64,000 bases of DNA from Posidonia oceanica (lineage: Eukaryota > Streptophyta > Magnoliopsida > Alismatales > Posidoniaceae), in the NCBI GenBank assembly GCA_037176725.1, contig JAZBRS010000029.1:129365001-129429000 (forward strand). Reading direction: 5' to 3'. This document shows, one piece after another, positions 14,470 to 48,760 of this stretch (position 1 is its first letter; every line of letters starts with the position of its first letter). Under the pieces are notes generated by a model that was not told the DNA's origin, did not search any database, and was given only the letters and a program-made list of their open reading frames with translations. A program made the translations under genes and the position numbers.

Positions 14470-17075
14470 TGTGACCGTCTGCCGCTTGGGCCCACGGCGG
14501 GTCTCGCAACGCTGCCATAGCTCGCGATGCGATCGTGCCGTGAGAGAGGGTGGTAAGCCGCGGTCAGCAGTGAATCTAGGGAAAAAACTCGACTCGAAAA
14601 CACTGAGAAAACGCAAAGAAAAAACACAAAGATAAGACAAAAATGGAGTCGCCACCTAGTCTATTGTTGGGAAGATGAGGAAAACCGGGGAAATGTAAGA
14701 AAACATGCAAATGGATGCAATGCTATGCAAAATGATTGACTCGTGCCAAGGATGATGGCAAAATGGTCACTGTAGGCCAGAGAAAGGGTAAGGACTCCTG
14801 TTACGCATGGGAAGGTATTAGGCACCCCCGACACGTCCGAGGAATCGGTCTTTCTTGGCTAAACTTGCTTGCATTTGTAGGATTGTCGGCAATGCTTGCC
14901 TTTAACTGTACGCCCAGGGGGCGATGAATGCCATGCCATGCTATGTATGCTTAAATGCCTGAATGCCATGTATGGAAAATTAAGCGTGCAGCCTATGTGC
15001 TTAGCAGCATTGCCTGTGTTCCGAACCGGGCGGGTCCTGGTTCGTAAGAACTCCAGACAATAAGCATCACTACCCTAAATGCGATGCAGGCAAGAAATTA
15101 AAATGCCGAAGAAAACCAAGCAATGCGAATAGCGACATGCAATGGAAAATAAGTCTGAGGCGGAAAACCACGAGAAAGCAAGCGATGCGAGGAGTAAAAC
15201 AGGTCGAAAGGACAAAGCCAAGGTGCAAAACTTGAAAGCCACAGCTAAATCACATGCTGGAATGATTAAACATGCTCTGGAAGTGAACAAATGCAAGAAA
15301 CGAGGATCGGGCCGAAAATAGCGATTAAAAACTGTGTACAGCAGATTTAAAATGTTGGACGCTGAAATCACCAGCGTCCAACGTTGGACGCTGGGATCTT
15401 CAGTGTCCAACACCTGAAGTCTGATTTTTCAAAAGGAGTGAATGCATGCTATGATAAACACTGATCTAAATGTAATGCAGTAACTGAGGATGCACAAATC
15501 ATGCTGTGCAATCAAAGCAAGAAGCTGGTAATCACAGGATCAAGGCAAACAAGCATTAGCAGCAAATTAAAACTCAAACAGGGAAGAGCAACGTTGGATG
15601 TTGGACATCCCAGCGTCCAACGAGGCAAGGCAGATTCAAAAAAAAAAAAATGAGCACTTGAATTAAAATGCATTTAAGGGCAGTAAAGCACAAGATTCAA
15701 GGCATGATACAGATATGTGTGTGCCAATGCATGCTTCATGCAATATGATCAGTAAATGATTGATTGCATTGTAAGAAAAACAAGCTAAAAGAGAACAGGG
15801 ACGTTGGACGCTGGTATTGGCAACGTCCTACGTTGGACGCGTCGTACCAAGCGTCCAACACCCTGAACTAAGATCAGACTGTAATGTAGCTAAGTTGACA
15901 TGCAATTAAAGAGAAATGAAACATGAGATTACAAAATAAGTGGATGCATGCGTGAGAGGTGTATGCACAAAGATTTAGACCTCAACAAACATTTTAATCT
16001 ACTTGCAAAGGAAAGAAAGCAACAAATGAGCAACAGGGACGTTGGACGATGGGAATGGCAGCGTCCTACGTTGGACGCACCAGTTCCAGCGTCCAACATG
16101 TCGAGTTGCTTCAGATCATTCACAGGCGCTCAAATGGATTGAAAACTTAAAATTAGCTAGGTAATAAGCAAGAGCATGCAATAACGATCACAGACATGCA
16201 TTTAATGCAAGAAATGACTGAGTGGTTTGCTCTACCTGCCTCCTCCCTTTCGCCGCCGGAATTCATGGCTTTTCCGGCCACTAGAGTGGTCGGAATGCCA
16301 CGAAGCTCGACTGTGGAACTTTCTGAGGGTGAGGGAGGAGTGAGGAGCTAAGGAGGAGGATGTACCTACCTGTAATTTACGCCAGAGATGTCGCAGTGGA
16401 GGTGTGTGCGGCCGATTGGAGTTGGCAGACTGTGGGCGGATGGTGAGCTTGCTGGTTGGTCTGGAGGCCGGGGAACTGTGTGGGAAGCTTTGGTGCACTC
16501 TGGGGGACACTCCTGGATCGCACAAGGGAGGTTGGGAGGCTCTGGTGGCTCTCAATTCTCTCCGGAATCCGACTGTCTCTCTTGCTGTCCCGTTTGAATG
16601 GGTTGTGAGTTTTTGGTTTTGTTTGCTGGGCTACCTAGGTGGCAGGGCATGGTGGGGGTGTCTCAGTATGGTGTGGCGGTATGGAGGGGAGATCGTGGGA
16701 GTTGTCAGAGGCCACAAAAGTCAAAAGGAGATCATGGGTGCTCTGGTTGCTGTTTCAGTGCATTGGACGCTTGGCTGGGTGCGTCCAACGTTGGACGCTG
16801 GAATTGCTACGTCCAACGTTGGTCGTTGAAATGGGTGCGTCCAACGTTGGCTGCTGCAATGTACAGCGTCCAACACTCGAAAGAGGTTTTTGGGGTATTT
16901 TTGTGGGATTTTGGTGGATTTGGGCAGGTTTGAAGGTTTAGGTGTAGGTTTGGGGTCGGTTTGAGGGTCTAGGTGTAGGTTTGGGTGGGTTTGAAAAAAG
17001 AGAGCCATCCCAGAGTCTGAGCAAGCTTGCAGGAGAGTTCACCATCTTCCAGGTAGTCAAAATGGGGTGTCAACA
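14470..17075 (-). mobile_element. Solo LTR (2,606 bp) with 5-bp target duplication GCAGC, Tat-like
   Basis: Plus-strand ends are TGTGACCGTC at 14470 and GGGGTGTCAACA at 17075. The flanking 5 bp are identical, GCAGC at 14465-14469 and 17076-17080. The interior holds the conserved core (14,640-14,860), five palindrome clusters (15,354-16,875) and a telomere-like tract (16,890-17,000), but no primer site, PPT or gene, so it is a solo LTR. It belongs to the same broad group as the element A LTR but differs in the middle, having palindromes in place of the 91-bp array. Confidence 0.88.
15354..16875. repeat. Five clusters of GTTGGACGC/GCGTCCAAC palindromes (theme 2)
   Basis: Clusters at 15,354-15,411, 15,591-15,621, 15,801-15,860, 16,040-16,097 and 16,762-16,875. 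The full form is four half-sites in alternating orientation, GTTGGACGC-n-GCGTCCAACGTTGGACGC-n-GCGTCCAAC with spacers of about 12-14 bp, which would fold as two adjacent hairpins around a perfect 18-bp central palindrome. The first four clusters start 210-240 bp apart. Confidence 0.88.
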
Positions 17076-17080
17076 GCAGC

Positions 17081-26058: not shown

Positions 26059-29000
26059 CTAATCCTCCTCGTCTGAGTCAAGGGGTGGAGCGCCCTGGAT
26101 CCTCTGTAGGGTCTCCCGGTCCTGCTTTCTGTGCAGCCTCCTAGCGATCCTGGCAGAGACAGCTCGAGACTGCGAAGGATCTGATCCCACGCTGCATTCC
26201 CCGGTTGGGGACTCGACGTCAGAAACATCTACCAGGGCAAAGTCTACATAGAAATCGCCACTGGATCCAGTGTTGACAGCCGACCGAGGGTTGCCACCCT
26301 AAAAAGCAAACATCGAGGCAATTAGCAGCATTTACAACTTAAATCAAGTTATTTACATTTGGTTCAAGTTTGTACCTGTGGAAGCCGTCGCTCCCGCCTC
26401 GCCTGTGCAAAGAAAGCTAGATATGTCAGAACAGGCAGATATACAAATGCAATAATTTAAAAACTTATTTTACAGCTATTTTACCTGAGCTGATCTCATC
26501 TGCCTCAGCCACTCCCGCAGCTGCACCTCGAAAGCCTGCATTCGAGTCAAAGATCAGAATCAGAGCACAAATACAGCATTCATCGAATCTATAGCGGTGT
26601 TGAGGATTTTTACTTGGCTCCAGTTCTCATTATACCACATATGCACCTGTTCATCCCGAAGGTCTTCCAGGAATAGATGTGGCTTGCCAACCTGCTCAAA
26701 CCAATCGACGTACTCCTCCCGGGTAACCTCCTAGATGGTGAATCGACTACAAGCAGCCGCCGACATGGCCAAAGCAGTCCGGGCAGTAGCCTGGGTCATG
26801 GTCCCAGATGCCATGTCAATGGGAGGCGGAATGGGAATGCTGAACTCGTTAGTGAACTGGTGGCAGACCCGCCCAGCAAGATAATAGGCATACCGCTTGA
26901 GGTAGAAGAACTGGAGCTGCACCCTCCTAAGTCTCCGGCCCGAGACTAGTGGGGCCCACTCCAGGTCCTCGTACCTCAAGAAAGGACGAAGAGTCACTTG
27001 AAAGCAAAACAAAGCAAGCATCAGAACAGTTCACTAAGCATTTGTATTTAATTCAAATTCATACTTGAGCTAACCTTGTCAACACCTATAATGTCCAGCA
27101 AATAGCGGTACACCTCGTACCCATAGGCTCTCGAGGCAGCCAGGTGATCCGGCTCACACCACTGCTGGGGAGGAGGAAGAAGCTCGGGGCGAAGGTGGAA
27201 GAAATAGTGTCCCCGCCAGGAGTGCTTTATCGCCCAGTATTGCAAAGTAAGACAGACAGAAATGTCAGTACAGCTAACAGATAAGCAGAATTAAATTGAT
27301 TCAGAACAGAAAGCAGCTTGTCACTTACAGTCACTAGGGGATACAGGCCGATGTACGACCGATAGTTCCTGCGAACCACATTGTCCAGGCCATAGAGAAG
27401 ATAAGCATAACTGGCGCCTCCCCAGTCATAGCACCAGAGCTCGCCCACGTCGGCTATATAGATGAGCCAATCTGCGTGGACACAATATCCAGATACATCA
27501 CAAAAAATGACCCCCAAGAGGTCCAGCAAGAAGTGCCGCAGGACAAAAGTTGCCTCCTGCGAGTCGGGAACCGGGTCTGGCCAGATCTTATCCCACTCCT
27601 GCAGCCACGATGTGCGGAAGTTGTAGGTCGAGTGCGTCTGCTCCGACGCCAGTCTCCCCAGCAGCTCGGGGACCTTGGAGTATCCCAAGGCCCCCTTGCC
27701 TACAATTGGCTCCCCTCCAAAAGTCAACCCCGACAGCAAGGCCCAGTGCTTGGGCAAGATCGTCATCTCGTCATAGGGGAAGTGGAAGGTGTGCGTCTCG
27801 AACCACCACCTCTCAGCCAATGCCCGAAAGAAGATGTAGTGTCCGTGAATAGTGGGGATCCTAAGAAAACTGCCGAAGGGACTCTGGTGAAGCAAGAAGT
27901 CCTGCCAAAACTATGGCAGACGGCGAAAGTGGACCAGCATCGTCGCCCAGCCACACCGCATCACTCGGCGGGAGTCCCCGTCCTGTACAAGCAACAAGCA
28001 CAAAATTAGAAACAACTAGCATACATGCGAAGGAGGAAACTAAGAAAGGAGAAGATTCGTTACCTCGAAATCGTCGCGGTTGCAGATGTGGTCCCCGCTA
28101 AGCAAGCGACCACCATAGTTCCCCACTTCCTGCCAGAATTGAAAGCATAAATCAGTTTCAGTTTCAGAAACAGAAGCACAGGCTGAAAGAGCTGAGTTTT
28201 GAATCTACCTCTCTAGGGATAACCAGGCCAGGGCTAGCAGAACCCTCCTGCATGTCATCGGAATCAGAAGCTCCCTCGAATGCCTGGGATCCTGAGGCTC
28301 TCCTACCCTGAGGCCTCGAGCTCGAGGCACCACTCGTGCTAGCTCGCCTCGAACCAGACTATGAAGCCAAAAGTCGGGAGGTTCAGAGCAAATCATATTT
28401 TAAATGCAAGAAAAAGCATACGAACGGCATTTATTTTACAGAGCAATGCCAAACATAGGCAGAATCACGCACACACAAATGCAAACAGCAGGCATGCTAA
28501 AAAGGAAATTACGAGTGTAGCCCCGCCTTACGCATGCAAATCAGGCAAATGGCAATGCAAGCATGTTTTCATCACGTATTTGGACAAATACTTGTATTTA
28601 AAATGCAGCCAGACACAACATCACCAAGCCTAACAAAAATACAGGGCATGGCAGGCAGGCATATATCAGCATTCAGACAAGCATGGCATCCAGTCCGGCA
28701 TACAAAAATCAAGAAGGCAAGGCACAGATTTGATCATGTATACACAAGCTTGTTCATGGCATTCAAATCAGATTAGCAAAAAATCATCATTTATGAACTA
28801 AACATGGCATACATCAAACATGGCCGAGCAAAGCCACAGCCGAGTGCCACCACCATGCAAAGCCACCCCCGCAGCTCGCACCACAGGCCGTGCAAAGCTG
28901 CAGCTGAGTGCCACCACCATGCAAAGCCATCCCCGCAGCTCGCACCACATGGTCGTGCAAAGCCGCAGCCGAGTGCCACCGCCGTGCAAAGCCACAGCCA

Positions 29001-29165: not shown

Positions 29166-30693
29166 TTCAGTTGTCGCCGGAGAGTCGCTTGCCGCCGCCG
29201 GAGATGGATCCGAGCTCCGGTCGCGCGTCCCACGCTTGCGGAAGGCTTGCCACTGGAAATGACGCCCGCCTCTATGCCTCCAACTGCCACTCCTCGCCGG
29301 TGTCACCCTGCCGCTGCGTGCACAGAGAGGGAGATGACCGCCTGCTGTAGAAGGTGGAAGAGGAAGAGAGGAATGGAAGTCCAGGGCACGGGCAGGGTTT
29401 TGTTTGAACAAAAAATGGAAATCAAAACCTTGGCAAAAATAAATGAATGGTGCATACTAAGTTGTAAATACATTCAAACTTTGGCAAATTAGGTGAAAGA
29501 GTGCATCCTCACCACAGAGCAATTGCAAGCGGTTACCCTGGTGGGACCCACCAGGTTTTAAAACCTTCAGCATTCCCAGTAAATTTCTTTAAGGGCTAAA
29601 GTGCAATTTACCCAGAAAATTTGCAATCACACTTTAACTTTGTAGCAAATTAACTTAAACTCCCTCCACTTGACGAAATTGTCATGGAGCCCGGTACAGA
29701 TGGATACCACCCAAGGGTCCTACAGAACAGTGAGATTTGCTATATAGCCTTGCAGTTTTATGAAATTGCACATAGGTCCCTGACTTTTTGCGCGGACAGC
29801 AGAAATGATCACAGTACCATGATAGAGCTCTTGCATCGATGTTCGACAACACTCGTCGCATCACGGATGCCTCCAGGTAGGTAGTAGAGCAATGATATTC
29901 AGAAAATTGCAAAATAACCCTGCAATTCTATGAAATTGCATACAGGTCCTTGGCTTTTGCACATATATCTGAAATGGCTACAACATGAGGCAAAACCCTC
30001 GCATCAGTACACCAGAAGCCCGACAGTGCTAGTCACATCATGAGTACCCTGGATGGACAGCATAGCAGCAGTATCCAGCAGACTGTGGGACATTTCCTCA
30101 GGCTTGCAGAAATTACAGATAAGCCCCTAGCTTTTTCAGAAATGTCGAATCGGCTCCAACTCTCGACCGAGCCACAGCAGGACCCTTCAAGATTGCAAGG
30201 GAATCCCTACAGGACCTAGTCAGGTCATAACAGTCCGAGACGGGCAGTAAATCTCACAATTTGGGCAAATTGCAAAGAGGCCCCCATAGTTTATCAAGCA
30301 GTCAGAACCTCTTCAAGAGGATTAACAGTTTGATCAAAGCATCATCACAGCATCCCTCAGTCATCCCATGTCAGGTAGGATTGTCAGACGGCCGACCGCG
30401 AAAATTGTACGGAAGCCCCTATCTTTCCATGGGAGCCACAGAGCACACTTTTGGCACCCTATACAGCTGCGGTCAACCTGCAGAGTGCCCCTTCAGCCTG
30501 ATACATCTTTCAGAGCACACAACAACCAGACAAGAGTACAGAACCCCAGCAACGGGATAAATTGCAACTACACCCCTACAGTTTGGCACATCTGCATATG
30601 TGCCCCTACCAGAATAGGAGCTGCAGTTTCACCCATCAGGCGATGCAGTCACAAGTCACCGGCTGGACGCATCGGAGCACTTTCGAGCTTTCC
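29166..30693. repeat. Upstream region with degenerate ~180-bp repeats and a 19-bp palindrome
   Basis: A near-perfect inverted repeat, CCTGGTGGGACCCACCAGG, lies at 29,537-29,555. From about 29,735 roughly five degenerate units of 160-200 bp begin with a phrase like GAAATTGCACATAGGTCCCT (29,762; 29,932; 30,110; 30,268; 30,558). The phrase resembles the (A)ATGCAA...GGACTTAAATGC units of the Tat LTR arrays. This may be LTR sequence of the element whose end is at 32,126, but a left boundary was not found. Confidence 0.5.
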
Positions 30694-31387
30694 CTTTCGC
30701 ATTGTCTCTTCGGAGTCTCGCCCGCTTGCTTCCTTAGGCGAGGACAAGTCTTTCGCGTTGCCTCTTCAGAGTCTCGCCCGCTTGCTTCCTCAGACGAGGA
30801 CAAGCCTTTCACGTTGCCTCTTCGGAGTCTCGCCCGCTTGCTTCCTTAGGCGAGGACAAGCCTTTCGCGTTGCCTCTTCGGAGTCTCGCTCGCTCGCTTC
30901 CTCAGGCGAGGACAAGCCTTTCGTGTTGCCTCTTCGGAGTCTCGCCTGCTTGCTTCCTCGGTCGAGGACAAGCCCTTCGCGTTGCCTCTTCGGAGTCTCA
31001 CCCGCTTGCTTCCTCAAGCGAGGACAAGCCTTTCGCATTGCCTCTTCGGAGTCTCGACCGCTTGCTTCCTCAGGCGAGGACAAGCCTTTCGTGTTGCCTC
31101 TTCGGAGTCTCGCCCGCTTGCTTCCTCAGGCGATGACAAGCCTTTTGCATTGCCTCTTCGGTGTCTTGCCCGCTTGCTTCCTCAAGCGAGGACAAGCCTT
31201 TCGCGTTGCCTCTTCGGAGTCTCGCCCGCTTGCTTCCTCAGGCGAGGACAAGCCTTTCGCGTTGCCTCTTCAGAGTCTCGCCCGCTTGCTTCCTCAGGTG
31301 AGGACAAGCCTTTCGCGTTGCTTCTTCGGAGTCTCTCCCGCTTGCTTCCTCAGGCGAGGACAAGCCTTTCGCGTTGCCTCTTCGGAG
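30694..31387. repeat. 56-bp tandem array, about twelve copies
   Basis: The unit has GCCTCTTCGGAGTCTCGCCC, GCTTGCTTCCTCAGGCGAGG and ACAAGCCTTTCGCGTT. Copies are 90% or more alike by eye, so the array is young or homogenised. CCTCAGGCGAGG is a short inverted repeat and the unit contains a CGCG step. Because 56 is not a multiple of three, translation cycles through three frames and gives long artefactual open frames on both strands. Confidence 0.92.
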
Positions 31388-32126
31388 AATCTTCTTTAAT
31401 TAATTAGTTTTATATGATATATAGATTATACCATATAAATGATAGAAAATTGTAGGAATGTCAATAATTATGGGAAAAAAGTTATAATACCTTATAAAAA
31501 TCCCATATATTATATTAATGCTGAGGATGACAAAATCCGTTGAGAGAGAGAGGCAGGATGGTTGTCGCCTGTCTTCACGGCGACAGCTCTAGTCGCCTTC
31601 AGGAAGGGCGACTAGTGGTGTTGCTTTGTAAAGTGGCGACAGGACGGTCTTTTTGCATTTTTAACCCTGTCTTTTATATTAATCTAGAGAAACATGCTAA
31701 AATCTGGAAAAAACTTCAGAAGTTCCATGAAACCATAAAAACATCTTCTTTAACATTAAGAAACTCAAATTTGCCACTGATTCGAGTGGAATGAGAGCAT
31801 TAACTCTGTCACAGTTAATGAACTCTCATTGAATAAGGTTAAGGGGACTCAAACTTGCCACTAGTTTGAGTAGAATAAGAGTGTTAGCTCTGTCACAGCT
31901 AACGGACCTAAATTGAGAAAAAGTGTTCAAGATACTCAAACTTGTCACTGGTTTGAGTGTGTCAGCTCTGCCACAGCTAACGAATCAAGTAAAATTAGGT
32001 GATGTCTTTAATTAAATCACGGAAAAACTAGAAAATGTGTTATTAGGCCTTAGTTATGTGATTTAGGGTGCCTCAAAGGTTCCTATCCTTAAAGAACTCT
32101 GGAAAATGTGAAAATGGGATATCTAC
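31388..32126 (-). mobile_element. LTR end of a minus-strand element (J), left boundary unknown
   Basis: The plus-strand end GGGATATCTACA at 32126 is followed by AATGCCCCTCC (minus-strand PPT). On the minus strand it starts TGTAGATATCCC, like the plus-strand LTR starting at 51,977 (TGTAGATATCC). It includes a GGCGACT/AGTCGCC cluster (31,566-31,653) and three repeats of ACTCAAACTTGCCACT...GTTAGCTCTGTCACAG (31,745-31,985). The LTR may extend left through the 56-bp array. Confidence 0.6.
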
Positions 32127-33185
32127 AAATGCCCCTCCTTGGAGTTGATCTTGGAACAAGATCGGCTCCAAGGCAAGAACAGTGTCCCATTGAGCATTTC
32201 CTGAAGAGGGGAACTCTGTCTCTAACAATCCGCCACTAGGGGAAACTAACTAAAGAAAACAAAAAAGAAGTGGTGAACGGACTTGGTTTCGGGACATTGT
32301 CACACAGCCGAGTGGTTTGATTAAGTGCCATCATATTGAAGGCTCGGGCATGGAGGGGTCAAGCCAGTTTCGGAGCTATTTGTCACAGACGGTGTCAAGA
32401 CCATATCAACCATGTAGAGATGTGCTTCAATGAGGCAAAAACTAAGGAGGAGATCGCAGGGATTTACCCTATTGCTGATCGAAAGGAGAAAGATTTTGGC
32501 ATCATGTTTGAGATTTTACTTAGATTGGAATTGATAAAAAGGATAAGTAGGAATTGATTGGCTCTAGGAGGATCACATATTCTAAGGGTTTCTAACACTC
32601 TTTAAGAACATTGCTCCGTTCGTGCTCCACTTCCAATGATATGAGAAATAAATGCATGGATGCATGATTCAAGCAAACAATGATAATGCAAGGTCAACAT
32701 GCAATGCAATGAATGGTCCACATGCTAGGTTAGGCCAACGGGGTATAGTTGGTTCCAAGCCATATGGACATATGCAAAATGAATGAATGCAATTCATTAT
32801 GGTTAAGTGTTTTCCGTCCTTGAGTGTGACCAGTACCCTCGGGAAAGGACCGTCATCCCACAACTTGATTTGGCAAATAAAGAGGTTCTATAATTAAAGA
32901 ACCGGGTGAGGGAGTGAACCCTTCATTTGCCAAACCAGGGTTTGCCTTTTAGTCAAAGTGGATGTGCCTTCGTGCACCATATGAGCCTCCAAGGCGTGAG
33001 CTCATTCTTCATATTGTAAGCTTTACACCTGCACACTTAATAACACATGTTAGTAATCACAGGTGAACCTTTCCTAGTCCCTAAGGGGATTAACTAAGTT
33101 ATACTTGTACAGAAAATAAAGTAGTCACTTAATCAACATTACTTGCTCCTATGTCGAACTTGTTTCCTGCTTGTGCTCCTGTGCC
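32127..33185 (-). mobile_element. PPT and internal fragment of element J, no gene recognised
   Basis: AATGCCCCTCCTTGG at 32127 is the PPT on the minus strand. Beyond it is AT-rich sequence containing GCATGC-rich stretches (32,650-32,800) but no recognisable protein. The right end merges into the LTR-like sequence at about 33,186. Confidence 0.45.
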
Positions 33186-33473
33186 TATTTTCGGTCGACC
33201 GGAATAATTTGGTCTTCCAAATCAAGGATTTTCGGTCAACCGAATGAAAATCGATCTATCGAATTCTGGATCTGGATTGTATCCAGACCTCTTGTTCGGT
33301 TGACCGAATGAAATTCGGTCTGTCGAACCTGGTATGGGATGTTTCCCAGGCCTATTTTTAAGGGATTTTAATTAATGATTATTTAGCTTTTATTTGTGCT
33401 TATGCCTGTGATTATTTTGTGGCTTGATAAAGGTTTTCAAAGATAGTCTTTTGAAAAGATATGAATGTGTTTC

Positions 33474-36400
33474 TGTAGACACCCCATTTTGACAGTCCGG
33501 AAGTTGGTTGTTTTCTCCTGTAGGCTCGTGTGGACTCTGGAATGGCACTCCTTTTTTCTAACCCATTTCTACCCCCAAAACCTAGCCTAAAACCAAGCCT
33601 AAAACCCTTGCCTAAACCCCGAGCCTTAACCCAAGCATTTTTGCACCTTTTTAGCCCAAGCCCAAGCCCATTTGCAGCCTTTTGCCAACTAAGTGTGTTG
33701 TACGCTGGAATAGGCAGCGTCCAACGTTGGACACGCCCTGTGCTAGCGTCCAACGTTGGACGCCTCCTGCTCCAACGTCCAACGACTCGGTTGCAGCAGC
33801 AGCTACTCCGCCCTCTTCGGCTCACCTCCCGTCCACTCCACCACCTCCCCGCACTTACTACCTGTCCCCTCTTGCACTCCAAGCCACCCACTACCTTCCA
33901 AGGCCGAGTTACTAGCCATCTTCTCCATCTCAGCACCATTTCCGCTCTCTCGGCCCTCACTGCCTTCAGCCGCCCTTGTCAGCCACCGCCGCAGCTTCGC
34001 CGGCCGTCTGACGCGCCCCTGCCAAGCCCCTGCCATCCCTCGTGGCTCCCTCACACCCAGAGCCTCTGACTCCACCTGCCAAGCCTGCCAATTTCCCTTT
34101 GATCCGCTGCCATTTGCAGCAAAACCCAAGCAACCCATGCACAAAACCAGCACCAAACACCCTTCTTCCCAAGGACACACCCACTCTTTTTGCAATTCTC
34201 CACCTCCAGAGCAAAGACGAAGTATCGACCTTCCTCTTGGACCCTTCGCCGCCCTCTCCCGTGCTTCCAACAGCCCGCAAGACCTCGCTGGAGTCAGCTC
34301 TGCCACTCCTTCCACAGTGCAGGTGAAGGAGGTCGACACGCCGTTCCAAGCCGCAACCAAGTAGGTTCTCTATCTCCGTAGCTCATGCATGCTAGGTTGA
34401 GTGTTTCCCCATGCTTTCCATGCATCTTAGCATAGCACACACCCCTCCATTGCTCGGTTTTCCGGCGATGAGGAGGAGGAGGTGGGTGGAGCATTCCACC
34501 TGCCTATTCTTGGTACCAAGCATACCACCATGCTTGTTGTCAATCACTCTTGCTTATTAGCAAGCTTGCTTGAAGTTTTGGTTCCATTTGGCCGCGATTT
34601 GTGGCCAGAGGGAAGTTCAGTGTGTTGGACGCACCAGCTGGTGCGTCCAACGTTGGACGCGGCATAGGCTAGCGTCCAACACTCTGCTTTCCTTAGCTTT
34701 TGTTCTGATGCTTTCCATGCTCTATTGTTGGTCTATTTCTGTGAGTTTGTGCTGCATGCCTTCTTTATGCGTTTCCAGATGCTATGCCATGCCATGCTTG
34801 TCTCTTGGTTTTGATCCATGCCTAAGTCTTTTTTGCATGCTTTAAGTCTGCTTGCTTTCTGCCTGCGTTGGACGCCTAGGTGAGCCGTGTCCAACGTTGG
34901 ACGCTGGTTCATCCAGCGTCCAACATGCCTGTTAGTTTTAACTTGCTGCCATGCTTGCACCTTGCCTCTTTTTGCTATTTATGCATGATCCATGCTTGCT
35001 TAGAGATGCCTGGTCCCTACGGCAACCGTGCTTAGGTTTGCTAGAATCCTTTCAAGTTGCATGCTCCTTTTTGCAAGTTTTTAATCTTTTATTTCCATGC
35101 ATGCTTTCTTTTTATTTCCTCTCATGCATTATATGCTTGCTATGAATGTTTCCTTTTGCTCTGGCATGTCTCAGTAGTTTGCATGCATATAGGTAGGGTT
35201 TAGAGCTGAGCTCCCCCTTAGCACAGGTGGGTTTGCATTCTGCTGGCGTTGGACGCCAGAGGCTTCAACGTCCAACGTTGGACGCTGCTGTCTCCAGCGT
35301 CTAACGGTCCTGCTCCTCTGCTTGCTTTTAGATGTTTGCATGTTGCTCTGATCTTTCTTGTTTGCATGATTCCTGCGTTTACATGCATGCTTAGCTTTCT
35401 TTGCAATTATTCCATGGCTTCCTTAGTTCATATGCTATTTTCCATGCAAGTTCTTGTGTGTTTGTGCCTCCCAAGGCGTTGTACGCTACTGGTGCAGGCG
35501 TCCAACATTGGACGCCGGCTCAACTCGCGTCCAACGTCCTGGTTGTGCTTCATGCCTGGCACAGTTTGCAGATGGTAAGTTTTTGACTTTTTGTGTGATC
35601 CCATGCTTGTATGCTCAGTCTGTGTTTGTCCCCAGCAGCCCAAATGCATGTTCCTATTTTCATTTGCTATTTGCATGCTTATTTCTCTTGCTTTCCTCTG
35701 GCCTGTGTTGGACGCTAGCCTCTCTGGCGTCTAACGTTGGATGCCATGCCCACGGGCGTCCAACACCCTGCTTGCTTTGATCCTTGATCCTAGCTTGCCC
35801 CTTGCTCTAAGTCCTCCTCTGGTCTTCTATCAGGTTAGTCCTGCATGTCATGCACCCATCTAGCTGCATTTCTGCATCTGTACTACATTCATGTAGCTAG
35901 AATGCATCATTTTTTAAAAATTGCATGCTGTCAGCCTCCAGCAGGTGTTGGACGCCAGCAATGGCAGCGTCCAACGTTGGACGCCGCTGTTGCCAGTGTC
36001 CAACGCTTGTAGTTGGCTTGATTTGGTTTTAAAACGCCGACTTGATTTCATTCGCCGTTTTTCGTGTTTTATCGCTTCTTGTTTGTACTGCTGCCCCACC
36101 ATGCATGCTGCCTAACCCCTGTTTTGGTTTTGTGCCTTGCTTTGCATTGTTTTCCGCATTTCGCACCATTTTCTGCACCTACTTTGCTTTATCGCTTGCA
36201 TGCCGTTCACATTGCCTGGTTTGCCCCGCAGCTTTGTTTTATCGCCTACATCTGCATTAGGGCTATGATGCTTACTGCCTAGGAGTTCTCATGAACCAGG
36301 GTCCGCCCAGTTCGGAACACTAGCAGCGTTGCTAAGCACATAGATAGCACGTTTATTTCCCATGCATAGCAAGTAGACATTCATTGCATTTAGGCATTAG

Positions 36401-36827
36401 GTTAGCATTTCCCTGGATTAGCGCGAGATTGCCTAAGAAAGACCGACTCTCGGACGTATCGGGGTGCCTAACACCTTCCTCGTGTGTAACAGGAGTTCTT
36501 GCCCTTTCTCTTGGCTCGCATCGACCTTTCCTTTATCCTAGGCATGAGTCATAGCATAGCATAGCTTAGCATTGCATCCCTTTGCCCCCTCTTTGCATCC
36601 GATTTTGCATGTTTTTTCATGCATTACTCTCGATTTTCCCTGTCTCCCAATTCAATAGACCTGGTGGCGACTCCGATTTGTCTTATCATTTTCTTTTTCT
36701 TCTTTTGCCAGCGTTTCTGAGTCAAGTTTCTTCCCTCAGATCCTGCCGCATATGGTGAGCCTATTTTGATCGGTGCACGTGAGCTTTTGGCATCGTGCAT
36801 GGACGATCAGAATTCAGGATTACTACA
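33474..36827 (+). mobile_element. Solo LTR (3,354 bp) with 5-bp target duplication GTTTC, Tat-like
   Basis: Starts TGTAGACACCCC at 33474 and ends GGATTACTACA at 36827, with GTTTC on both sides (33469-33473 and 36828-36832). Rejoining the flanks restores continuity with the neighbouring copy at 38,320-38,420. The interior has a short telomere-like tract (33,575-33,670), seven palindrome clusters and the conserved core (36,425-36,680), and no gene. It is inserted in the opposite orientation to the solo LTR at 14,470. Confidence 0.9.
33697..36005. repeat. Seven GTTGGACGC/GCGTCCAAC palindrome clusters, partly at ~235-bp period
   Basis: Clusters at 33,697-33,784, 34,623-34,682, 34,866-34,925, 35,247-35,306, 35,477-35,536, 35,706-35,765 and 35,946-36,005. 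Each of the last six is 60 bp long with four alternating half-sites; start-to-start distances are 243, 381, 230, 229 and 240 bp. Spacers are rich in TGCATGC and differ from each other, whereas the half-sites are kept. Confidence 0.92.
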
Positions 36828-37950
36828 GTTTCAAAAAGGTTTGCCGAGATTTTTGTCGAGGCCGAAACCTAGGAGTCGTGTGGTCTGGACCCGGCGATAC
36901 GACGCCGTTCCTGGTGCGTCGCACACTTCACCTGGGCTGAGGTTTGGGGGTCGGGGTGCCGGCCGTACCTAGCGGTATCGTGGCAGCGGACTCGGGAGGC
37001 ATGATACTCCTGCGTAGCTGGGCGTGATACCCTAGTTGCTACGGGCACCGGAACTCGCCTTTGTTTTGGGGTGTTGGTTGAGCCTAAGGGTGAGGAGCCT
37101 CTAGTGGTTCAGAACATTGAGCTTGTGGATGCCGATAGTTGCGTGCCCTGTGGTTTTGTTTGGAGTGTGGACAGCTTGCCTAGGTGGGGTGAGTAGCTTT
37201 CCCAGGTGATGATCGCTTTTTGAGGCTTCTCTAGTGTGAGAATGTGTGACGGGCACGTTCCTCCACAAGGCAGGTATTCGTGGCAGTGCAATGAGTGTGG
37301 GGGTGAGTCCTTGGCTACTGCTTGAGGCCAGGTTGGTTGCTTGGCGCCAGGCAATGCGACTAGTTGTAGTTTTTCTGTGCTTGTGGGGCTGTGTTTGGTT
37401 TGTTGCTGGCCGTATTGGGCCTTGAGCTTTGCCTATTTTGTGGCTTTGTAGCTTTTACCGAGTTTTGGGCCTAGAGTTTTCCCGCCTTTTTGCGGCATGT
37501 GGTTTCTGTTGAGTTTTGGGCCGGTAAGCCGGGTTTTGAGATAAATGAGACTGATTTACATCTGATTTTTCCGATTTAGCTTATTGGGCTTTAGGAAAGA
37601 TGTTTTTTTATATTATAAAGTGATTATGTTGATCCAGATTTGGGGCTTTTGACCGGTTTCACGCCGTATTGTGGTTTTATGCTAGTTTTCTCGTGGTTTT
37701 TGCGAGGTGTGTGCTGGGTGACAATTTCTGGTCACTCACGTGTGTTTTATTGTGGTTTTAGTTGCAGGTGCAGATGATTCGCTGGTTTGGGATCATAGTG
37801 CATATAGCTGGAGTCATGTAACTGTCCACTGCAGGTTCCTAGCATAGATTTTTGTTGTTTAGCTCGTAGATAATTGTATATGTAGCTTTTATTTATGTTT
37901 TAATTTGTTTGGGCTTTTGGAATGTGTTGGTAGCGACTCGGGTTGTTACA

Positions 37951-39378
37951 CTTGTGGTTTTTTGGTGTTTTTGTGAGCTATGTGCCTCGGAATGCCATGA
38001 TTCTTCTGTTGATGCATTCCTTGTCTCATTCCGGACATTTTGGTAAATTGTATGCGATTTTTCAGTGAATGTAGGGAAAATGGGATTTTTGGGAAAATGG
38101 CAAGTTTGCCCGGCTGTGCCCTGATTCAGCATGCCGATCCTTCGGCTTGCCGTGGCAGGGGATAGTTCGGAAGACCAAAATCTTTTGGTCTGCCGAACCA
38201 GGGCTTGGAGTGGTAACAAGCTCTTGGTTTGGTCGACTGGAAGATTCCGGTTTGCCAAACTAGTGCCTGGGACTTTTCCTAGGCATGTTTTGGTGGGTGT
38301 TTGTTTATTGATTAATTAGTGTTTAATTGTGCTTTAGCCTATGTTTATCTTGTGGCTTGATAATGGTATTCAAAGATGATTTTTGGGAAAATATGGAGGT
38401 GTTTTCAAAAGGTTTTGCCGAAGTTTTGTTGGGGCCGAAACCTGGGAGTTGTGTGGTCTGGACCCAGGGATGCGACGGTGTTCCTGGCGTGACGCACACT
38501 TCGCCCGGGCTGAGTTTCGGGGGTCGGGGTGTCGACCGTACCTAGTGGTATCGTGGCAGTGGACTCAGGAGGTATGATACTCCTGCGTAGCTCGCGCGTG
38601 ATACCCTAGTCGTCACAGGCACCGGGACTCGCCTTTTTGTGGTGCTGAGGGACCCATGAGTGGTCCAGAGCACTTTGTTGCGAGCACCAATGAGGTGTGT
38701 CCTGTGGTTTTGTCTCGAGTGTGGACAGCTCGCCCAAGTGGGGTGAGTAGCTTTCCCAGGTGGGGATCACTTTTGAGGCTTCTCTGGTGTGAGAATGTCG
38801 TGACGGGCATGCTCCTCTACAGGGCAGGTGTCCGTGGCAGTGCAGTGAGTGTGGGGGTGAGTCCCTGGCTACTGCTTGAGGCCAGGTTGGTTGCTTGGCC
38901 CCAGGCAATACAACTAGTTGTGGTTTTGTGCTCGCGGGGCTGTGTTTTGGTTTGTTGTTGGTTGTATTGGGCCTCCAGCTTTTCCCGCTTTTGCGGTATT
39001 TAGATTTTTGCTGAGTTTTGGGCCGGTGGGCCGAGCTTTGATTAATAAGGATTGATTTACATCCGGTTTTCCCGTTTTGGGCTTATTGGGCTTTGGGAAA
39101 TATGCGTTATTATTATAAAATGATTATGCTGACTCGGATTTGGAGTTTTGATTGGTTTATGCCTTATTGTGGTTTCTATTCCGGTTTTGTCGTGGTTTTT
39201 GCGAGGTGTGTGCTGGGTGACAATTTCTGGTCACTCACGTGTGTTTTATTGTGGTTTTAGTTACAGGTGCAGATGATTAGCTGCTGTTGGTTCATAGTGC
39301 ATATAGTCGAAGTCACGTAGTTGTCCACTGTAAGTTCCTGGCATAGATTTTGTGTAATAGCCTGTTTATAATTGTAAC
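37951..39378 (+). mobile_element. Second, head-to-tail copy of the Ty3-type LTR (G2)
   Basis: It directly follows the 3' end of the first copy with no internal region between. From 38,320 to 39,378 it follows the first copy almost base for base in order, then is cut at ATAATTGTA where minisatellite sequence begins. It contains theme-1 variants at 38,115-38,270 (TTCGGAAGACCAAA, TTTGGTCTGCCGAA). Open frames on both strands are short and not shared as proteins. Confidence 0.65.
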
Positions 39379-40469: not shown

Positions 40470-42072
40470 CGATACCCCTTTTGAGTCCAAGAGTATCCTA
40501 GAAAGATACATTTTATTGCCCAAGGAGATAACCTGTCAAGTCCATTGATGAATATGTACATAACAAGTACACCCCAAAACACAAAGAGCGAAAGAAAACA
40601 AACATTTATTTGGAAAGACCACTTGAAAAGGAATAGCACCCCCAAGAGCAGAGGATGGCATCCTATCGACGAAAAAACAAGTAGTTAAAACAGCATTGCC
40701 CCAAAAAAGTTTTAGGAACATTCATTTGGAACATCAAGAATCGAGCAACGTCTATTACATGCCTATTTTTCCTTTCAGCCATGTCATTTTGGTGCGAAGT
40801 GTAAGTACAAGAACTTTGATGAATAATGCCATGAGTAGAACAATTAGTGTTAAAAGAACTTTTCATGTATTTGAGCGCATTGTCAGTTCTCAAGATACGT
40901 AAGGGAGTAGAAAATTGTGTCATTATTTCATGGTGAAAAGATTTGAATACATAAAAAAAAATGATCTATCTTGAAGAAGGTAAAGTCATGTCATTCTAGA
41001 GTCGTCATCCACAAAGATGATAAAATATTTAAAACCACCAATAGTAGCAGCATGACATGGTCCCCTGACATCACTATGAATTAATTGGAACAAACTAGTA
41101 CTTTTATTCTCAAAACGCAAAGGAAAAGACACTCGATGATGATTGCCTAATTGGCACGCATTACACGAGAAATTAGATACCGACTCACTAAGGGACACAA
41201 TTTTCTTCAATTTAGTAATGGAAAGATGACTAAGACAGAAATGCCATTGAAATGGAGAAACAACAGTAGACGTAGCAGGAATAGAGCCAGGACTAAGATG
41301 GTAGACTCCGTCTGACTTAGCACCCTTACCAATTGTCACCCTCGTCTGAAGCTCCTGAAAAAGACAATGAGAGGGAAAATAGGTTACTGAACAATTCAAG
41401 GATTTGGTAATTTGACTCACAGATAATAAGTTAAAGGATAACTTGGGAACATGTAAAACATGATCTAACGTAATAGATGAGGTTTTAACAGTGCCTACAC
41501 CATTGATTGGAGACACGGAACCATCTGCAACAGTAATGGGAGAGCACCGAGACGTAACAGAAAGGCTAGAAAACAGAGTGCGATTACCTGTCATATGACT
41601 CGAGGCACCAGAATCATTTAACCAACATTTATTATGAGAGACGAAAAAAGCCGATGTATCGGACTTTAGAGCATGTGTAGCAACAGTGGTAGAAGATTGA
41701 GATACACGAAGACGGTCATACTCCTCAAGAGAAAGATGAATTATATCACCAGATGTTGGAGAAGTGTTCGCAGTAGCCACAACTGCTCTAGAAGACTTTG
41801 ACCCGTGATCCAATGTAGTTTCCCATGTTTTTTCCAACAAGTATCCTCTGTACGTTTCAACTTGCCACAAAATGTGCACTTCCGATCATCACACAGCTGG
41901 CCATTACGCCCTCCAAAGGACTGTCGGTGGTGACCATTAGGCACTTTGTTAGTCCTAGAGCCATCATGTGCAGCCATAGCAGAATGATCCATCAGTGTCA
42001 TAGCTAACGGGGATATAGTAAAGAATGCAGTAGATAGACGAGAAAATACAGATGTTAATGAAGGAATAGTCT
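40470..42072 (-). pseudogene. gag-pol: Copia gag-pol fragment: gag zinc knuckle, protease, integrase
   Basis: On the minus strand: gag C-terminus (MTLMDHSAMAAHDG...CTFCGKLKRTEDTC, where the zinc-knuckle histidine is lost), then, after a frameshift, protease with DSGASSHM (about 41,615), the GAG-pre-integrase segment (WHFCLSHLSITKLKKI; CNACQLGNHHRV) and the start of integrase (LIHSDVRGP, FVDDDSR). After an interruption near 40,930-40,985 the integrase core resumes with LRTDNALKY and THGIIHQSSCTYTSHQND, and decays by 40,470. Reverse transcriptase is absent. Stops and frameshifts make the copy inactive. Confidence 0.85.
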
Positions 42073-42397: not shown

Positions 42398-42476
42398 TGT
42401 AGACACCCCGATTTTGTAGTCCTTCGTCGGCGGTTTTCTCCCAGGAATGTGCTCGGTCGTGGCGGCCCCCACCTAT

Positions 42477-42728
42477 TCACTAAATCCAAACCCAAACCTA
42501 AGCCTTGTCCAAAACCCAACCCTAAACCCAAGCCTAATCCTAAAACCAATCCAAAACCCAACCCTAAACCCAAGCCTAATCCCAATACCAAGCCTAATCC
42601 CAATACTAAGCCTAAACCCAAGCCTAATCCCAAGCTCAACCCCAAACCCAAGCCTAATCCTAAAACCAATCCCAATACCAAGCCTAAAACCCAAGCCTAA
42701 GCCCATTCCAAGCCCAAGCCCAACCAAA
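42477..42728. repeat. Degenerate telomere-like CCTAAN tract in the 5' LTR of element D
   Basis: About 250 bp of hexamer-like units, CCCAAA, CCTAAA, CCTAAT, AACCCA, near the LTR start. Equivalent but shorter tracts lie at the same end of the LTRs at 12,690-12,830, 16,890-17,000, 33,575-33,670, 51,130-51,265 and 62,690-62,960. Confidence 0.85.
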
Positions 42729-42761
42729 AAATCAGAAAAACATCCAAAATCTACTCTGGGT

Positions 42762-44392
42762 CGTTGGACGCTGGATATGCCCGTGTCTTATGTAAGACGC
42801 AGAAATTCCAGCGTCTAACGTCGCCAGTCTCTATGGGACGTAAGACGCTACCTGAAACAGCATCTTATGTAAGACGTAGCTCAAGTACGCGTCTTACACA
42901 CCGGGACTGACAGAGCTTGATTTTGGGATTTCAATCGACTCCCAAGTGCAAATACCTTTGTGTCCTCCATCTAGAACACATTTCCGGCCAAGTCCCATGT
43001 CCCCTCATTTCCACTTCAGCTGTTACACCCATGCAAACCAAATAAAATCCTTTCTTCTCCTCCATTGAAGGGGAGGCACCCATTATCCTGAGGAAAAATT
43101 CCCAGAACTTGACCACGACAAAAGAACCTGAATTGCTACACCTCCGACCAACCAATAACCTCCTTGGTGCCCAGCCAAACCCTCCAGCCGCCACCATCGC
43201 CGCTGCAATCTCTGGTAGAACCTCGCCGGCGAAGGGAAGCAACATCAACCTCCACAACAGGTAAGTTTCCCTTCCCTTTTAGATTAGAATCTTGAATTCT
43301 ATGTCGAATGTGTTCAAGTCAATACATATAATCTAAAATTGCTTGAGTTATTTCTCTATTTTTGCCATTTTATTTTTTCTCTGGTGATGGGTTCCGGCCA
43401 CACGAGGCCTCCGGCCATTGAGCTCAGCCGAGAATCCAGTCATCCCCGCATGTGCCATGCCATCTCCCGGTCTTCCCTAACCTCCACTGAGCTTCATGGC
43501 CATGTACCATGGCTTCCTGGCCTTACAATGGCAGGAGAACCCATTGGATTCCGGCGAGAGGCAAGTGGAGGTGGGGAGGACAGTATGGACGTCCATTTTT
43601 TATAGAATTTGCATGTTTATGTTCGTAGATGTCTATTCTTGCTTGTGGAGTGATTTTTGTTTGGATTCGTTTCGATTTGAATGGATTCTTAATCTGAATG
43701 CTCTGTTAGGGCGTTGGACGCTGAGTCTGGTGCGTCTTACGTAAGACGCTACCAAGGCTAGTGTCCAATGCCCCTGATGTCGATTTCCCATATTTTCTTT
43801 CATAAAATGATTTGGATGCTTCCTAATATTTGATTTATGATGCATGATGAGATTTTGACCTATCCTTATTATGTTTTTTTCATAAAAACATTTGGTAAAA
43901 ATAACCATGTCATGGTTCTGAGATTTATCATAAAACCTATTTTCAGGGTGTAAGACGCCAAGGGCACAGCGTCTTATGTAAGACGCTGTGTTCAGTAGCG
44001 TCTTACATTCCTGTTCAGATTTCTACAAATTTTATCTCATCAGATGCTTTTTATTGATATTTGAGATCTGATATGTGATACTTGCAGCCAATCTGAGCCT
44101 TAGTCACATGTGCTTTTAGCTTTCTACTGGTTTCCTTGGGTTTATTTGACTCATTTACAAACTGTCATCTTTTGAATGGAATCTTTGGAAATGTTTGAAT
44201 GAGTTTGTAAGTTGATATTGGAGTGAATATCTTGATTGCATATCATTTCCCCATCGTATTTTGATTTTTCATGAATAAAATAAGAGGTCTGTTAATTTCA
44301 AAGAAGTCATATTATAAAATCTGTGTTTTATGTATTAGATGCAGGATATTGTGCGTCTTACATAGGACGCTGGGAATCCCAGCATCCAACGC
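42762..44392. repeat. Palindrome clusters with GCGTCTTACGTAAGACGC variant (theme 2b)
   Basis: Clusters at 42,762-42,905, 43,712-43,769, 43,949-44,007 and 44,336-44,392. The central site in the second is the perfect 18-bp palindrome GCGTCTTACGTAAGACGC. Outer half-sites in the same cluster are still GTTGGACGC-like (GCGTTGGACGCTGAG... GTGTCCAATG), so old and new half-site types coexist in one LTR. Confidence 0.9.
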
Positions 44393-44945
44393 TTTCAGTA
44401 AACTGAATTTCATTTTAGAGTTTTTCGACATTGTTTTTGGGTCTGTTTGCTTTGATTTTAATCATCCAACATGATTTACATGTCTACAGTGTTTTGAGGC
44501 ATTTAACTTTCACTTTTGACATATTTCAAAGATATTTAGCATGTTTTCAAAAGGCATATAGCATATTTTCACTTAGCATGGCATTATCGCCTTTGGGCGT
44601 ATAGTAAATGGCATCATTGCCGACATTAGCCACAAACGAGCGGAATAACCCAGAAAGATCGACTCTCTCGGGCGCATGGGGGTGCCTATCACCTTCCTCA
44701 TGCGTAATAAGAGTCATTGCCCGATCTCTGGCCCGTAATGACCTTGTGTCATATCCTTTGCGTTTTATTTATTTTACATGTTTTTCTTAGTTTTCCTTGT
44801 CTTCCGGTTTTCCAAATAGACTAGGTGGCGACTCCAAGTTTTGTTTTGTTTTCTTTTCTTCGGCTTTCGCCCGTTTTCTTCATCTTTTTGCCGTGACCAA
44901 CGATTCGGCTCATATCGAGACGTTCGGTTGCATGGTTACAGAAAC

Positions 44946-44963
44946 TGGCGACTCCGCTGGGGA
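44946..44963 (+). other. Primer binding site of element D
   Basis: TGGCGACTCCGCTGGGGA, five bases after the LTR end TTACA. The same first ten bases occur inside the LTR at about 44,826 (GGTGGCGACTCCAAG), 120 bp upstream. Confidence 0.8.
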
Positions 44964-47689: not shown

Positions 47690-48760
47690 ATGCAGTTTTA
47701 AAAACATGCAGGACCTAAATGCAATGCCAAGAAAGCATGCAGACATGCAAAGTTGAAAACAGGGACTGACATGCAATTTCAGAAAACAGTTGGACCTTAA
47801 AACAATGCAATGTGGTTTAAAAATGCAAATTGAGTGATGCATGCATGCAAAATGGACTGATATGCAATTATGGCATTTTTCTGGGTTTTTTAGCAATGCA
47901 ATATAGTTTAAACAGGATTTAAATGAAGTCAGAACATGCAGCTGGACTAATGTGCAAATAAAACATGTTTTTGGGTTTTTCTGCAATGCAATATAGTTAA
48001 ATGCAGATTTAAATGAATGAATGAACTGATGTTGGACTAAGATGCAATTTTGAAAACATGCAGTACTTTATTTCAATGCAGTATGATTTAAAATGTCATT
48101 TAAATGATTTTCAAACCAACAGATGGACTGAAATGCAAATATTTAAACATGCAACACTTTAATGTAATGTGATATGGTTTTAAATGAAAATTAAATGAGA
48201 TGCAAACCAACAGAGGACTTACATGCAAATAAAACATTTTTAGGGTTGTTTATGCAATGCAATAAGGTAAACATGGCATTTAAATGATGTTAATGCATGC
48301 TCTGAGGACTGACTTGCAATTAAAACATGTTTCTGGATTTTTTAGCAATGCAATAAAGTCGAAAAATGCAACTTAAATGAATGCAGTTGATGCAAGGACC
48401 TAGATGCAAATATTTAAAAGTGCTGGATGCAACTACAATAAAAAAACAGAAGATATGCATGCTGTGCTTGGACTTGTGTGCAAATAAAACAAAGTGATGG
48501 GGTTTTATGCAATGCAGTATTGTTTAAAACAAACATTAAATGATTCATCAATCAAGCCTGGACCAGAACGCAAATAAAATAAGCTGCAGTAGTTTACTTC
48601 ATTGCAATAAAGTCAAAAAAGAGAAATTAAATGACAGTAGTTGATATAGGACCCAAACACAATTAAAAATAACTGAAGAGCTTCACTGCAAAGATAAAAA
48701 CTAAGCGTTTAACTACTGATGGACCTACTTGCAAGTATTTAAAAACTAATGAAATTAATT
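47690..48760. repeat. Degenerate ~90-bp tandem array in the 5.1-kb solo LTR
   Basis: Units contain GCAATGCAATATAGTTTAAA, ATTTAAATGAA and GGACTGATATGCAATT-like strings, ten or more copies. It corresponds to the array at 10,310-11,240. Confidence 0.78.

What the first reader, a model, noticed from the sequence alone, without database searches (positions are those of the whole stretch)
33697..36005. Periodic four-part palindromes (GTTGGACGC/GCGTCCAAC) inside an LTR
Six consecutive 60-bp blocks have the same layout: half-site, spacer, perfect 18-bp palindrome GCGTCCAACGTTGGACGC or close variant, spacer, half-site. They recur at 243, 381, 230, 229 and 240 bp. Spacers differ but half-sites are kept. 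Each block could form two back-to-back hairpins or bind a dimeric protein as paired sites. Preservation of the half-sites while spacers diverge implies selection or gene conversion on the palindromes. I know of no described plant LTR element with this architecture.
Basis: partly seen in the sequence, partly recalled or inferred. Interest (0 to 1): 0.9.

Follow-up and report, generated by a model that had tools for sequence, protein, structure and literature searches.

The report
Palindrome arrays in plant retrotransposon LTRs
A large family of plant retrotransposons carries, in its terminal repeats, regularly spaced four-part palindromes whose arms are kept while the sequence between them changes; they are probably control sites, and they offer a second plant case, outside the known Sirevirus one, for studying how such elements drive or hide themselves.

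Summary
LTR A (33474-36827) is a solo LTR with 5-bp target duplications. It holds six 57-58-bp blocks at the stated spacings, plus a three-unit cluster at 33697. The unit is a 28-29-bp hairpin: 9-nt arm, 10-11-nt spacer, 9-nt arm. Two more LTRs in the window carry the blocks; in one the arm is largely GTAAGACGC instead of GTTGGACGC. In the 2.96-Gb host genome the 18-bp palindrome occurs 47,725 times exactly (reversed control 0). Of 135 sampled palindromes, 128 have both outer arms at spacer 10 or 11. Between homologous copies half-sites change at less than half the rate of spacers (0.10 against 0.35 at 20-30% flank divergence), so palindrome-specific constraint is shown. New: spacers are not free; within a block they are complementary to each other and to themselves beyond chance. 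No RNA-strand signature survives control. Best reading: arrays of dyad binding sites for a sequence-specific protein in LTRs of a probably Tat/Ogre-like family. Palindrome arrays in LTRs are known from Sireviruses; the compound geometry, the scale and the probable Ty3 setting are new.

The parts
33474..36827 (+). LTR A, solo LTR of a probably Tat/Ogre-like family, TG...CA ends
   Evidence: TGTAGACACCCC start, TACTACA end, 5-bp direct repeats outside; homologous to LTRs B and C
33469..33473 (.). target site duplication GTTTC, left copy (right copy 36828-36832)
   Evidence: sequence
33697..33783 (+). cluster A1: three hairpin units (29 bp each), folds as one 87-nt dyad
34624..34680 (+). block A2 (two units), inner palindrome 34643-34660
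34867..34924 (+). block A3, inner palindrome 34887-34904
35248..35305 (+). block A4, inner palindrome 35268-35285; homologous to B2 and C3
35478..35535 (+). block A5, inner palindrome 35498-35515; homologous to B3 and C4
35707..35764 (+). block A6, inner palindrome 35727-35744; B has only one degenerate unit here (15593-15621)
35947..36004 (+). block A7, inner palindrome 35967-35984; homologous to B4 and C5
14470..17075 (-). LTR B, second solo LTR, opposite strand, TSD GCTGC on both sides
16762..16874 (-). cluster B1: four hairpin units
16041..16097 (-). block B2
15803..15859 (-). block B3
15593..15621 (-). degenerate single unit at the place of block A6
15354..15411 (-). block B4
42398..44940 (+). 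LTR C, 5' LTR of a related element (3' end inferred from the ACA before the primer site); same layout, half-site GTAAGACGC/GCGTCTTAC mixed with GTTGGACGC
44946..44963 (+). primer-binding-site-like TGGCGACTCCGCTGGGGA behind LTR C (tRNA-Arg type is recalled, not tested)
42763..42819 (+). block C1: outer arms GTTGG/GTTAG type, inner TAAGAC type
42840..42897 (+). block C2: all four arms TAAG type
43713..43769 (+). block C3: outer arms TTGG type, inner palindrome GCGTCTTACGTAAGACGC
43950..44006 (+). block C4: all four arms TAAG type
44334..44390 (+). block C5: outer arms TTAG and TTGG type, inner arms TAAG and TAGG type

Best explanation
The blocks are an array of dyad-symmetric binding sites for a sequence-specific DNA-binding protein, host-encoded or element-encoded, in the control region of the LTRs of a very abundant, probably Tat/Ogre-like Ty3 family. 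Each block offers four half-sites in fixed register (arm, 10-11 bp, arm, arm, 10-11 bp, arm). Selection acts on the copies that still transpose, so arms are kept across families while dead copies decay, mostly by C>T and G>A. Extra symmetry next to the arms and in the spacers is kept up either by selection for the dyad or by templated correction between palindrome arms. SHOWN: LTR context, geometry, conservation of arms and register in a genome sample, slower change of arms than of spacers and flanks, within-block complementarity of spacers, arm-sequence difference between related LTRs. INFERRED: that a protein binds, that the effect is transcriptional or anti-silencing, that only active copies are under selection, and which mechanism keeps the symmetry.
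For: Register: 128 of 135 sampled palindromes have both outer arms with at most 2 mismatches at spacer 10 or 11; at four decoy offset pairs, tried on the left side, at most 2 of 135 do. Rates in three flank-divergence bins: half-sites 0.042/0.089/0.101, spacers 0.109/0.237/0.356, flanks 0.087/0.170/0.248 (34, 41 and 76 alignments); with blocks defined in one copy only, so that decayed partners count too, half-sites 0.047/0.091/0.102 and spacers 0.115/0.231/0.348. Same-length homologous spacers 0.596 identical against 0.891 for arms at 20-30% divergence, n 342. Paralogous blocks in A: arms 0.89-0.96, spacers 0.25-0.36, flanks 0.32-0.40. T2 in 280 of 280 and A6 in 273 of 280 arms of 70 families (arms were accepted with up to 2 mismatches). 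Spacer 1 with spacer 2: Watson-Crick 217 of 590 (0.368) against 0.298 permuted, z 3.9, with GG and CC depleted; z 6.9 with gaps allowed. Base pair beside the inner palindrome: A-T 13, G-C 7, T-A 4 of 30 blocks. Arm deviations are C>T or G>A in 9 of 11 cases in A and 8 of 13 in B; CpG o/e is 1.15-1.28 in blocks against 0.47-0.61 outside. Precedents: Sirevirus palindromic motifs (PMC2829016, section 9); cis-regulatory arrays often palindromic (PMC10760457, passages).
Against: No binding, expression, methylation or small-RNA data were available. No TATA[AT]A was found in A or B, so position relative to the start of transcription is unknown. No known factor site was matched; the VOZ pattern GCGT-N7-ACGC (recalled) does not occur in the window, here it is N10. 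With a gap-permissive alignment the A-C and B-C half-sites were no better kept than spacers, partly because the arm itself changed to GTAAGACGC; only A-B differed. One-sided arm variants are common: TAGG/TTGG 19 against TAGG/TAGG 2 of 194 palindromes. Pairwise rates come from related, non-independent copies.
Confidence: 0.5

Rival explanations
1. The blocks work as RNA: hairpins in the LTR transcript (for packaging, dimerisation, RNA processing, or as the source of small RNAs).
For: All 14 two-unit blocks fold better than 100 mononucleotide shuffles (z -4.0 to -9.4), which the inverted arms alone would give; long-hairpin covariation score 0.291 against 0.169 shuffled, 0 of 500, two-hairpin form 0.208 against 0.160, 2 of 500; G-T over A-C pairs 82:53 in spacers, P 0.004. 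Sirevirus palindrome clusters attract small RNAs (PMC10760457, passages citing Bousios 2016).
Against: Sense and antisense fold equally well (P 0.57). In the window G-T and A-C in spacers are 16:15, in arms 12:5. CpG decay is strand-biased in flanks too, 527 TG to 365 CA, and half-sites (46:25) do not differ from flanks (P 0.38), so the G-T excess needs no RNA selection. No Rfam family at gathering score in 33001-37000 and 14400-17200; LTR C was not searched.
Confidence: 0.2
2. No present function: an old tandem array whose arms are kept alike by template switching between inverted repeats, a mutational bias.
For: Residual tandem similarity (about 230-bp and multiples) between blocks in A; spacers complementary within blocks although they differ between blocks, and weakly alike in direct orientation (z 2.8, P 0.005); template switching homogenises inverted-repeat arms (PMC8604942, abstract).
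Against: Within-block correction should not keep the same 9-mer across blocks and families; three of five blocks of LTR C keep inner and outer arms of different sequence. The spacer inversion expected from template switching was seen in at most 1 of 695 homologous spacer pairs.
Confidence: 0.2
3. Target sites of an element-encoded anti-silencing or regulatory protein, as VANC proteins use short motif arrays in VANDAL transposons (a special case of the best explanation).
For: Half-site difference between related LTRs; other LTR-like regions in the window carry the same 28-bp geometry with another half-site; VANC targets vary between related transposons and form repeats (PMC5735166, passages).
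Against: VANC motifs are arrayed in one orientation, these are inverted; A and B are solo LTRs and C is interrupted, so no encoded protein could be examined. Its confidence is counted within the best explanation.
Confidence: 0.12

Closest known systems
Sirevirus (Ty1/copia) LTR repeated motifs, Bousios et al. 2010 (PMC2829016, section 9 read) and maize Sirevirus palindromes (Bousios 2016, not held; seen only as cited in PMC10760457)
   Same: Many copies of a palindrome per LTR, sequence specific to the family, symmetric arms with variable intervening bases, CpG-rich
   Different: Here the sites are compound (four arms in fixed 10-11-bp register), the core is not CGG-CCG, they spread over about 2.3 kb of LTR instead of 300-500 bp, and the LTR is probably of the Ty3 Tat/Ogre type; maize Ty3 elements are reported generally to lack an obvious peak of such structures (PMC10760457, passage)
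VANC target arrays of VANDAL21 transposons (PMC5735166, passages)
   Same: Short motif repeated in noncoding TE DNA, varies between related families, units evolve together
   Different: Direct orientation, another 9-base motif, DNA transposon (recalled); the binding protein is known there and not here
Tnt1 superfamily U3 regions (PMC1838419, passages)
   Same: LTR regulatory region that turns over fast between subfamilies
   Different: The word palindrome does not occur in that text
Retand LTR elements (PMC11963269, abstract and passages)
   Same: Tat lineage, tandem arrays in noncoding DNA
   Different: LTRs 315-1,194 bp against 2.5-3.4 kb here; arrays lie in the internal region

Membership tests
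Tat/Ogre lineage of Ty3 retrotransposons | 5-bp target site duplication and TG...CA LTR ends | tested here: met
   LTR A GTTTC, LTR B GCTGC; shared with most plant LTR elements, so weak
Tat/Ogre lineage of Ty3 retrotransposons | primer binding site complementary to tRNA-Arg | tested here: inconclusive
   LTR C is followed by TGGCGACTCCGCTGGGGA; its match to tRNA-Arg is recalled, no tRNA was compared. tRNA-Arg is among those used by non-chromoviruses (PMC6317226, passage)
Tat/Ogre lineage of Ty3 retrotransposons | additional RNase H domain between RH and INT | not testable with these tools
   A and B are solo LTRs; the internal region behind LTR C is interrupted by another LTR whose end is at 46248. 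A Pfam scan of pieces of it failed and was not repeated
Tat/Ogre lineage of Ty3 retrotransposons | extra ORF with plant mobile domain (57% of Ogre elements, PMC6317226 passage) | tested here: inconclusive
   One ORF above the PMD cut-off at 27227-27910 and one below it at 24881-25438 (29.2 against 34.9 bits; DUF7745 above cut-off); neither was tied to these LTRs
Sirevirus repeated motif | at least eight palindromic copies per element | tested here: met
   8 inner palindromes in LTR A alone
Sirevirus repeated motif | CGG-CCG core (12 of the 13 listed motifs) | tested here: not met
   the palindrome is GCGTCCAACGTTGGACGC or GCGTCTTACGTAAGACGC
Sirevirus repeated motif | copies start 200-400 bp into the LTR and span 300-500 bp | tested here: not met
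   first cluster starts at 224, last at 2474 of 3354
Sirevirus repeated motif | Ty1/copia polyprotein | not tested
   no internal region belonging to A or B
VANC-type target array | motif arrayed in one orientation | tested here: not met
   arms alternate in orientation
VANC-type target array | motif differs between related elements | tested here: met
   GTTGGACGC in A and B, GTAAGACGC in C, at homologous blocks
microRNA precursor | Rfam gathering score | tested here: not met
   best hit MIR5229, 27.9 bits against 80, with several unrelated miRNA families also below threshold

The most novel reading that the evidence does not exclude
The 28-29-bp dyad unit is a general control module of LTRs in this genome: unrelated LTR families keep its geometry while swapping the half-site (GTTGGACGC, GTAAGACGC, AGTCGCC/GGCGACT), as if each family were paired with its own fast-evolving binding protein that protects or activates its LTRs.
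Probability: 0.18. Interest if true: 0.85.

Novelty: new variant of a known kind. Interest (0 to 1): 0.55.

Why it matters
It carries the palindrome-array theme, known from Ty1/copia Sireviruses, into a very large, probably Ty3-type family, with enough copies (211,533 palindromes with up to two mismatches) to test statistically why such arrays persist although hairpins are thought to invite silencing. The half-site change at homologous blocks, and the second half-site family with the same geometry, make co-evolution with a binding protein directly testable by DAP-seq and methylation data.

Tried and rejected
Spacer inversion by template switching: 1 of 695 homologous same-length spacer pairs, rejected. 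RNA-level selection from G-T over A-C: positive in the genome sample, absent in window spacers, and explained by a strand bias also present in flanks; kept only as a rival. MicroRNA precursor: only sub-threshold matches to several unrelated families. VOZ-type site GCGT-N7-ACGC: absent from the window. Viral-collection hits of the 18-mer: 3 loci with one copy each and no array, taken as chance. Strict dyad coupling of arm types: 10 of 10 dyad pairs agree in LTR C at position 3 (permutation P 0.003), but 56 genome families show no clear preference of dyad over hairpin concordance there. In 194 palindromes, not cleaned of related copies, positions 3-5 agree beyond permutation (z 3.4, 7.5, 4.7) and CpG positions do not. 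Exact genome counts are 47,725 TTGG/TTGG, 1,303 TAAG/TAAG, 834 mixed, 120 TAGG/TAGG (the tool calls counts of repeats lower bounds); the one-sided TAGG count did not complete, so that test is incomplete. Within-spacer self-pairing was not significant in the window but is in the genome sample (z 4.9). The spacer core (positions 5-8) shows no gapless pairing excess in 30 genome blocks; the signal sits next to the arms. Direct likeness of spacer 1 and 2 is weak (P 0.15 in the window; P 0.005 in the sample). A label says flanks were realigned; they were not, and one search replaces it. One search's gap-permissive comparison supports the constraint for A-B only. A Pfam scan of pieces of C's interior failed; of 10 further ORFs scanned, 1 had hits (DUF7745 and PMD).

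Sampling limits: 30 loci (L004-L033) were seeded by exact 18-mers from the first 4.4 Mb of contig C1, so inner arms there are biased; outer arms and spacers are not chosen by the seed. Of 20 stretches asked for, 18 were given: 6 aimed at clusters and 12 placed arbitrarily or beside the window; 2 of those 12 held palindromes. Overlapping loci were dropped (9 of 48; 42 sequences with the three window LTRs). Blocks without both outer arms (7 of 135) were dropped before the spacer tests. Clustering by spacer likeness cut 128 blocks to 70; 56 are isolated two-unit blocks. In the window tests the clusters A1 and B1 and the single unit 15593 were left out except where said.

Full report
What is there. 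The interval lies in a solo LTR (LTR A, 33474-36827, + strand) bounded by TGTAGACACCCC and TACTACA and flanked on both sides by GTTTC. It contains seven clusters of a 28-29-bp unit: a 9-nt arm GTTGGACGC, a spacer of 10 or 11 nt, and the reverse complement arm GCGTCCAAC. The 18-bp palindrome is simply the junction of two units. The stated spacings are exact. Chance does not explain it.

Relatives in the window. LTR B (17075 to 14470, - strand) is a second solo LTR with GCTGC on both sides, and LTR C (42398-44940) is a 5' LTR followed by a primer-binding-site-like sequence. Outside the blocks the three are identical at 49-54% of ungapped columns, and they carry homologous blocks (A4-B2-C3, A5-B3-C4, A7-B4-C5). 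B1 has four units. In C the arms are of the GTAAGACGC type, throughout two blocks and mainly in the inner palindrome of the other three, where the outer arms remain of the GTTGGACGC type (GTTAG in places; one inner arm of C5 is TAGG).

Genome-wide test. The window's own genome (2.96 Gb) has 47,725 exact copies of GCGTCCAACGTTGGACGC (reversed control 0) and 211,533 with up to two mismatches (control 5). In 48 fetched loci (270,540 bp, partly overlapping) I found 135 distinct inner palindromes with context; 128 have both outer arms at spacer 10 or 11. Spacing between neighbouring palindromes (160 with up to 3 mismatches) repeats that of LTR A: 60 of 130 gaps under 3 kb fall at 200-260 bp and 16 at 28-29 bp; clusters have 2 units (131), 3 (10) or 4 (3), single units not being detectable this way.

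Constraint. In pairwise alignments of copies, binned by flank divergence, half-sites differ at 0.042, 0.089 and 0.101, spacers at 0.109, 0.237 and 0.356, flanks at 0.087, 0.170 and 0.248 (34, 41 and 76 alignments; a fourth bin has 2). Those counts need a recognisable block in both copies. When blocks are defined in one copy only, the half-site values hardly move: 0.047, 0.091 and 0.102 (67, 86 and 155 directed alignments). Spacers may look faster than flanks in part because BLAST keeps alignable flank. Half-sites change slowly although they are CpG-rich, and most of their changes are transitions (0.79-0.87). The pairs are not independent of each other.

Spacers are not free. The minimum-energy fold of 11 of 14 two-unit blocks in the window is one long hairpin in which spacer 1 lies against spacer 2; A2 and A6 fold as two hairpins, C5 as neither. 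In the window, own partners pair better than permuted partners: P 0.00025 for Watson-Crick pairs over all 14 blocks, and with permutation inside each LTR P 0.007 (Watson-Crick) and 0.0005 (with G-T). In 56 genome families Watson-Crick pairs are 217 of 590 (0.368) against 0.298 permuted, z 3.9, with GG and CC depleted, so base composition is not the cause. Self-pairing within spacers is also raised in that sample (0.395 against 0.306), though not in the window. The excess is strongest beside the inner palindrome, where A-T, G-C and T-A all occur (13, 7 and 4 of 30), absent in the spacer core of those 30 blocks, and absent outside the block. So both the two-hairpin and the one-dyad symmetry are favoured; the data do not choose between them.

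DNA or RNA. A G-T over A-C excess in the sense strand (82:53, P 0.004) would point to RNA, but CpG decay is strand-biased in flanks as well (527:365) and half-sites do not differ from flanks (46:25, P 0.38). Orientation was set by T-over-A skew, so this bias is partly built in. Sense and antisense fold alike. I therefore favour DNA-level function.

Mechanism. Fixed register (arms 19-20 bp apart, about two helical turns), an arm 9-mer shared across sampled families, and symmetry argue for a dimeric sequence-specific protein on paired sites. Unit numbers of 2, 3 and 4 and a change of half-site between LTRs fit an array under turnover. Template switching can keep arms of one block alike (PMC8604942, abstract) but should not give the same 9-mer everywhere. 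What the protein does, activation or protection from silencing, is inference.

Known background. Sirevirus LTRs carry palindromic motifs, at least eight per element, nearly all with a CGG-CCG core (PMC2829016, section 9). [quoted passage not shown] VANDAL transposons show motif arrays read by their own protein (PMC5735166, passages). The Tat/Ogre label for A-C rests on the C primer site (tRNA-Arg recalled), on LTR ends shared with many elements, and on a plant mobile domain ORF elsewhere in the window (PMC6317226, passage); it is likely, not proven. Searches for this motif or for palindromes in Ogre LTRs listed no description; only listings were seen for most papers.

Noticed in passing
31563-31641, 52333-52480, 61726-61892: Other LTR-like regions carry 28-bp-period hairpin units AGTCGCC-N9-GGCGACT-N5, the same geometry with an unrelated half-site, several of them degenerate; at 31563/31591 the end base pair changes from T-A to A-T. 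In the region starting 51975 the array lies about 400-530 bp upstream of a TATAAATA at 52864-52871. A genome count was asked for and not answered.
   Followed up: partly
33190-33330: Palindromes of the type TTCGGTCAACCGAA just upstream of LTR A; the core CGGTCGACCG equals the repeated motif listed for the Vitis Sirevirus (PMC2829016 Table 3).
   Followed up: no
40986-41885 (-): Fragment of a Ty1/copia-type polyprotein (Pol_BBD above cut-off, GAG-pre-integrase below it; the copia assignment is recalled).
   Followed up: no
33474-36827 and 46248-51366: RY-type TGCATG is enriched: 18 in LTR A (shuffle mean 2.7, max 9) and 20 in LTR E (mean 1.6, max 5).
   Followed up: no
24881-25438 and 27227-27910 (-); 7794-8432 (-): ORFs with DUF7745 (PMD below cut-off), plant mobile domain (PF10536) and Transposase_32 (PF20167).
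   Followed up: no
30693-31387: 56-bp tandem array, 12.4 copies, 91% matches.
   Followed up: no
33404-33472 plus 36828-37852, and 38337-39351: Diverged tandem duplication of about 1.5 kb; LTR A is inserted inside its first copy.
   Followed up: no
10370-11171 and 47853-48231: About 91-bp tandem repeats in two further LTR-like regions (D, E) that lack the palindromes but share the LTR 3' end with A and B.
   Followed up: no
1097-2152 (-): Host gene fragment with a PWWP domain; named hits include Ensete and Stephania proteins.
   Followed up: partly
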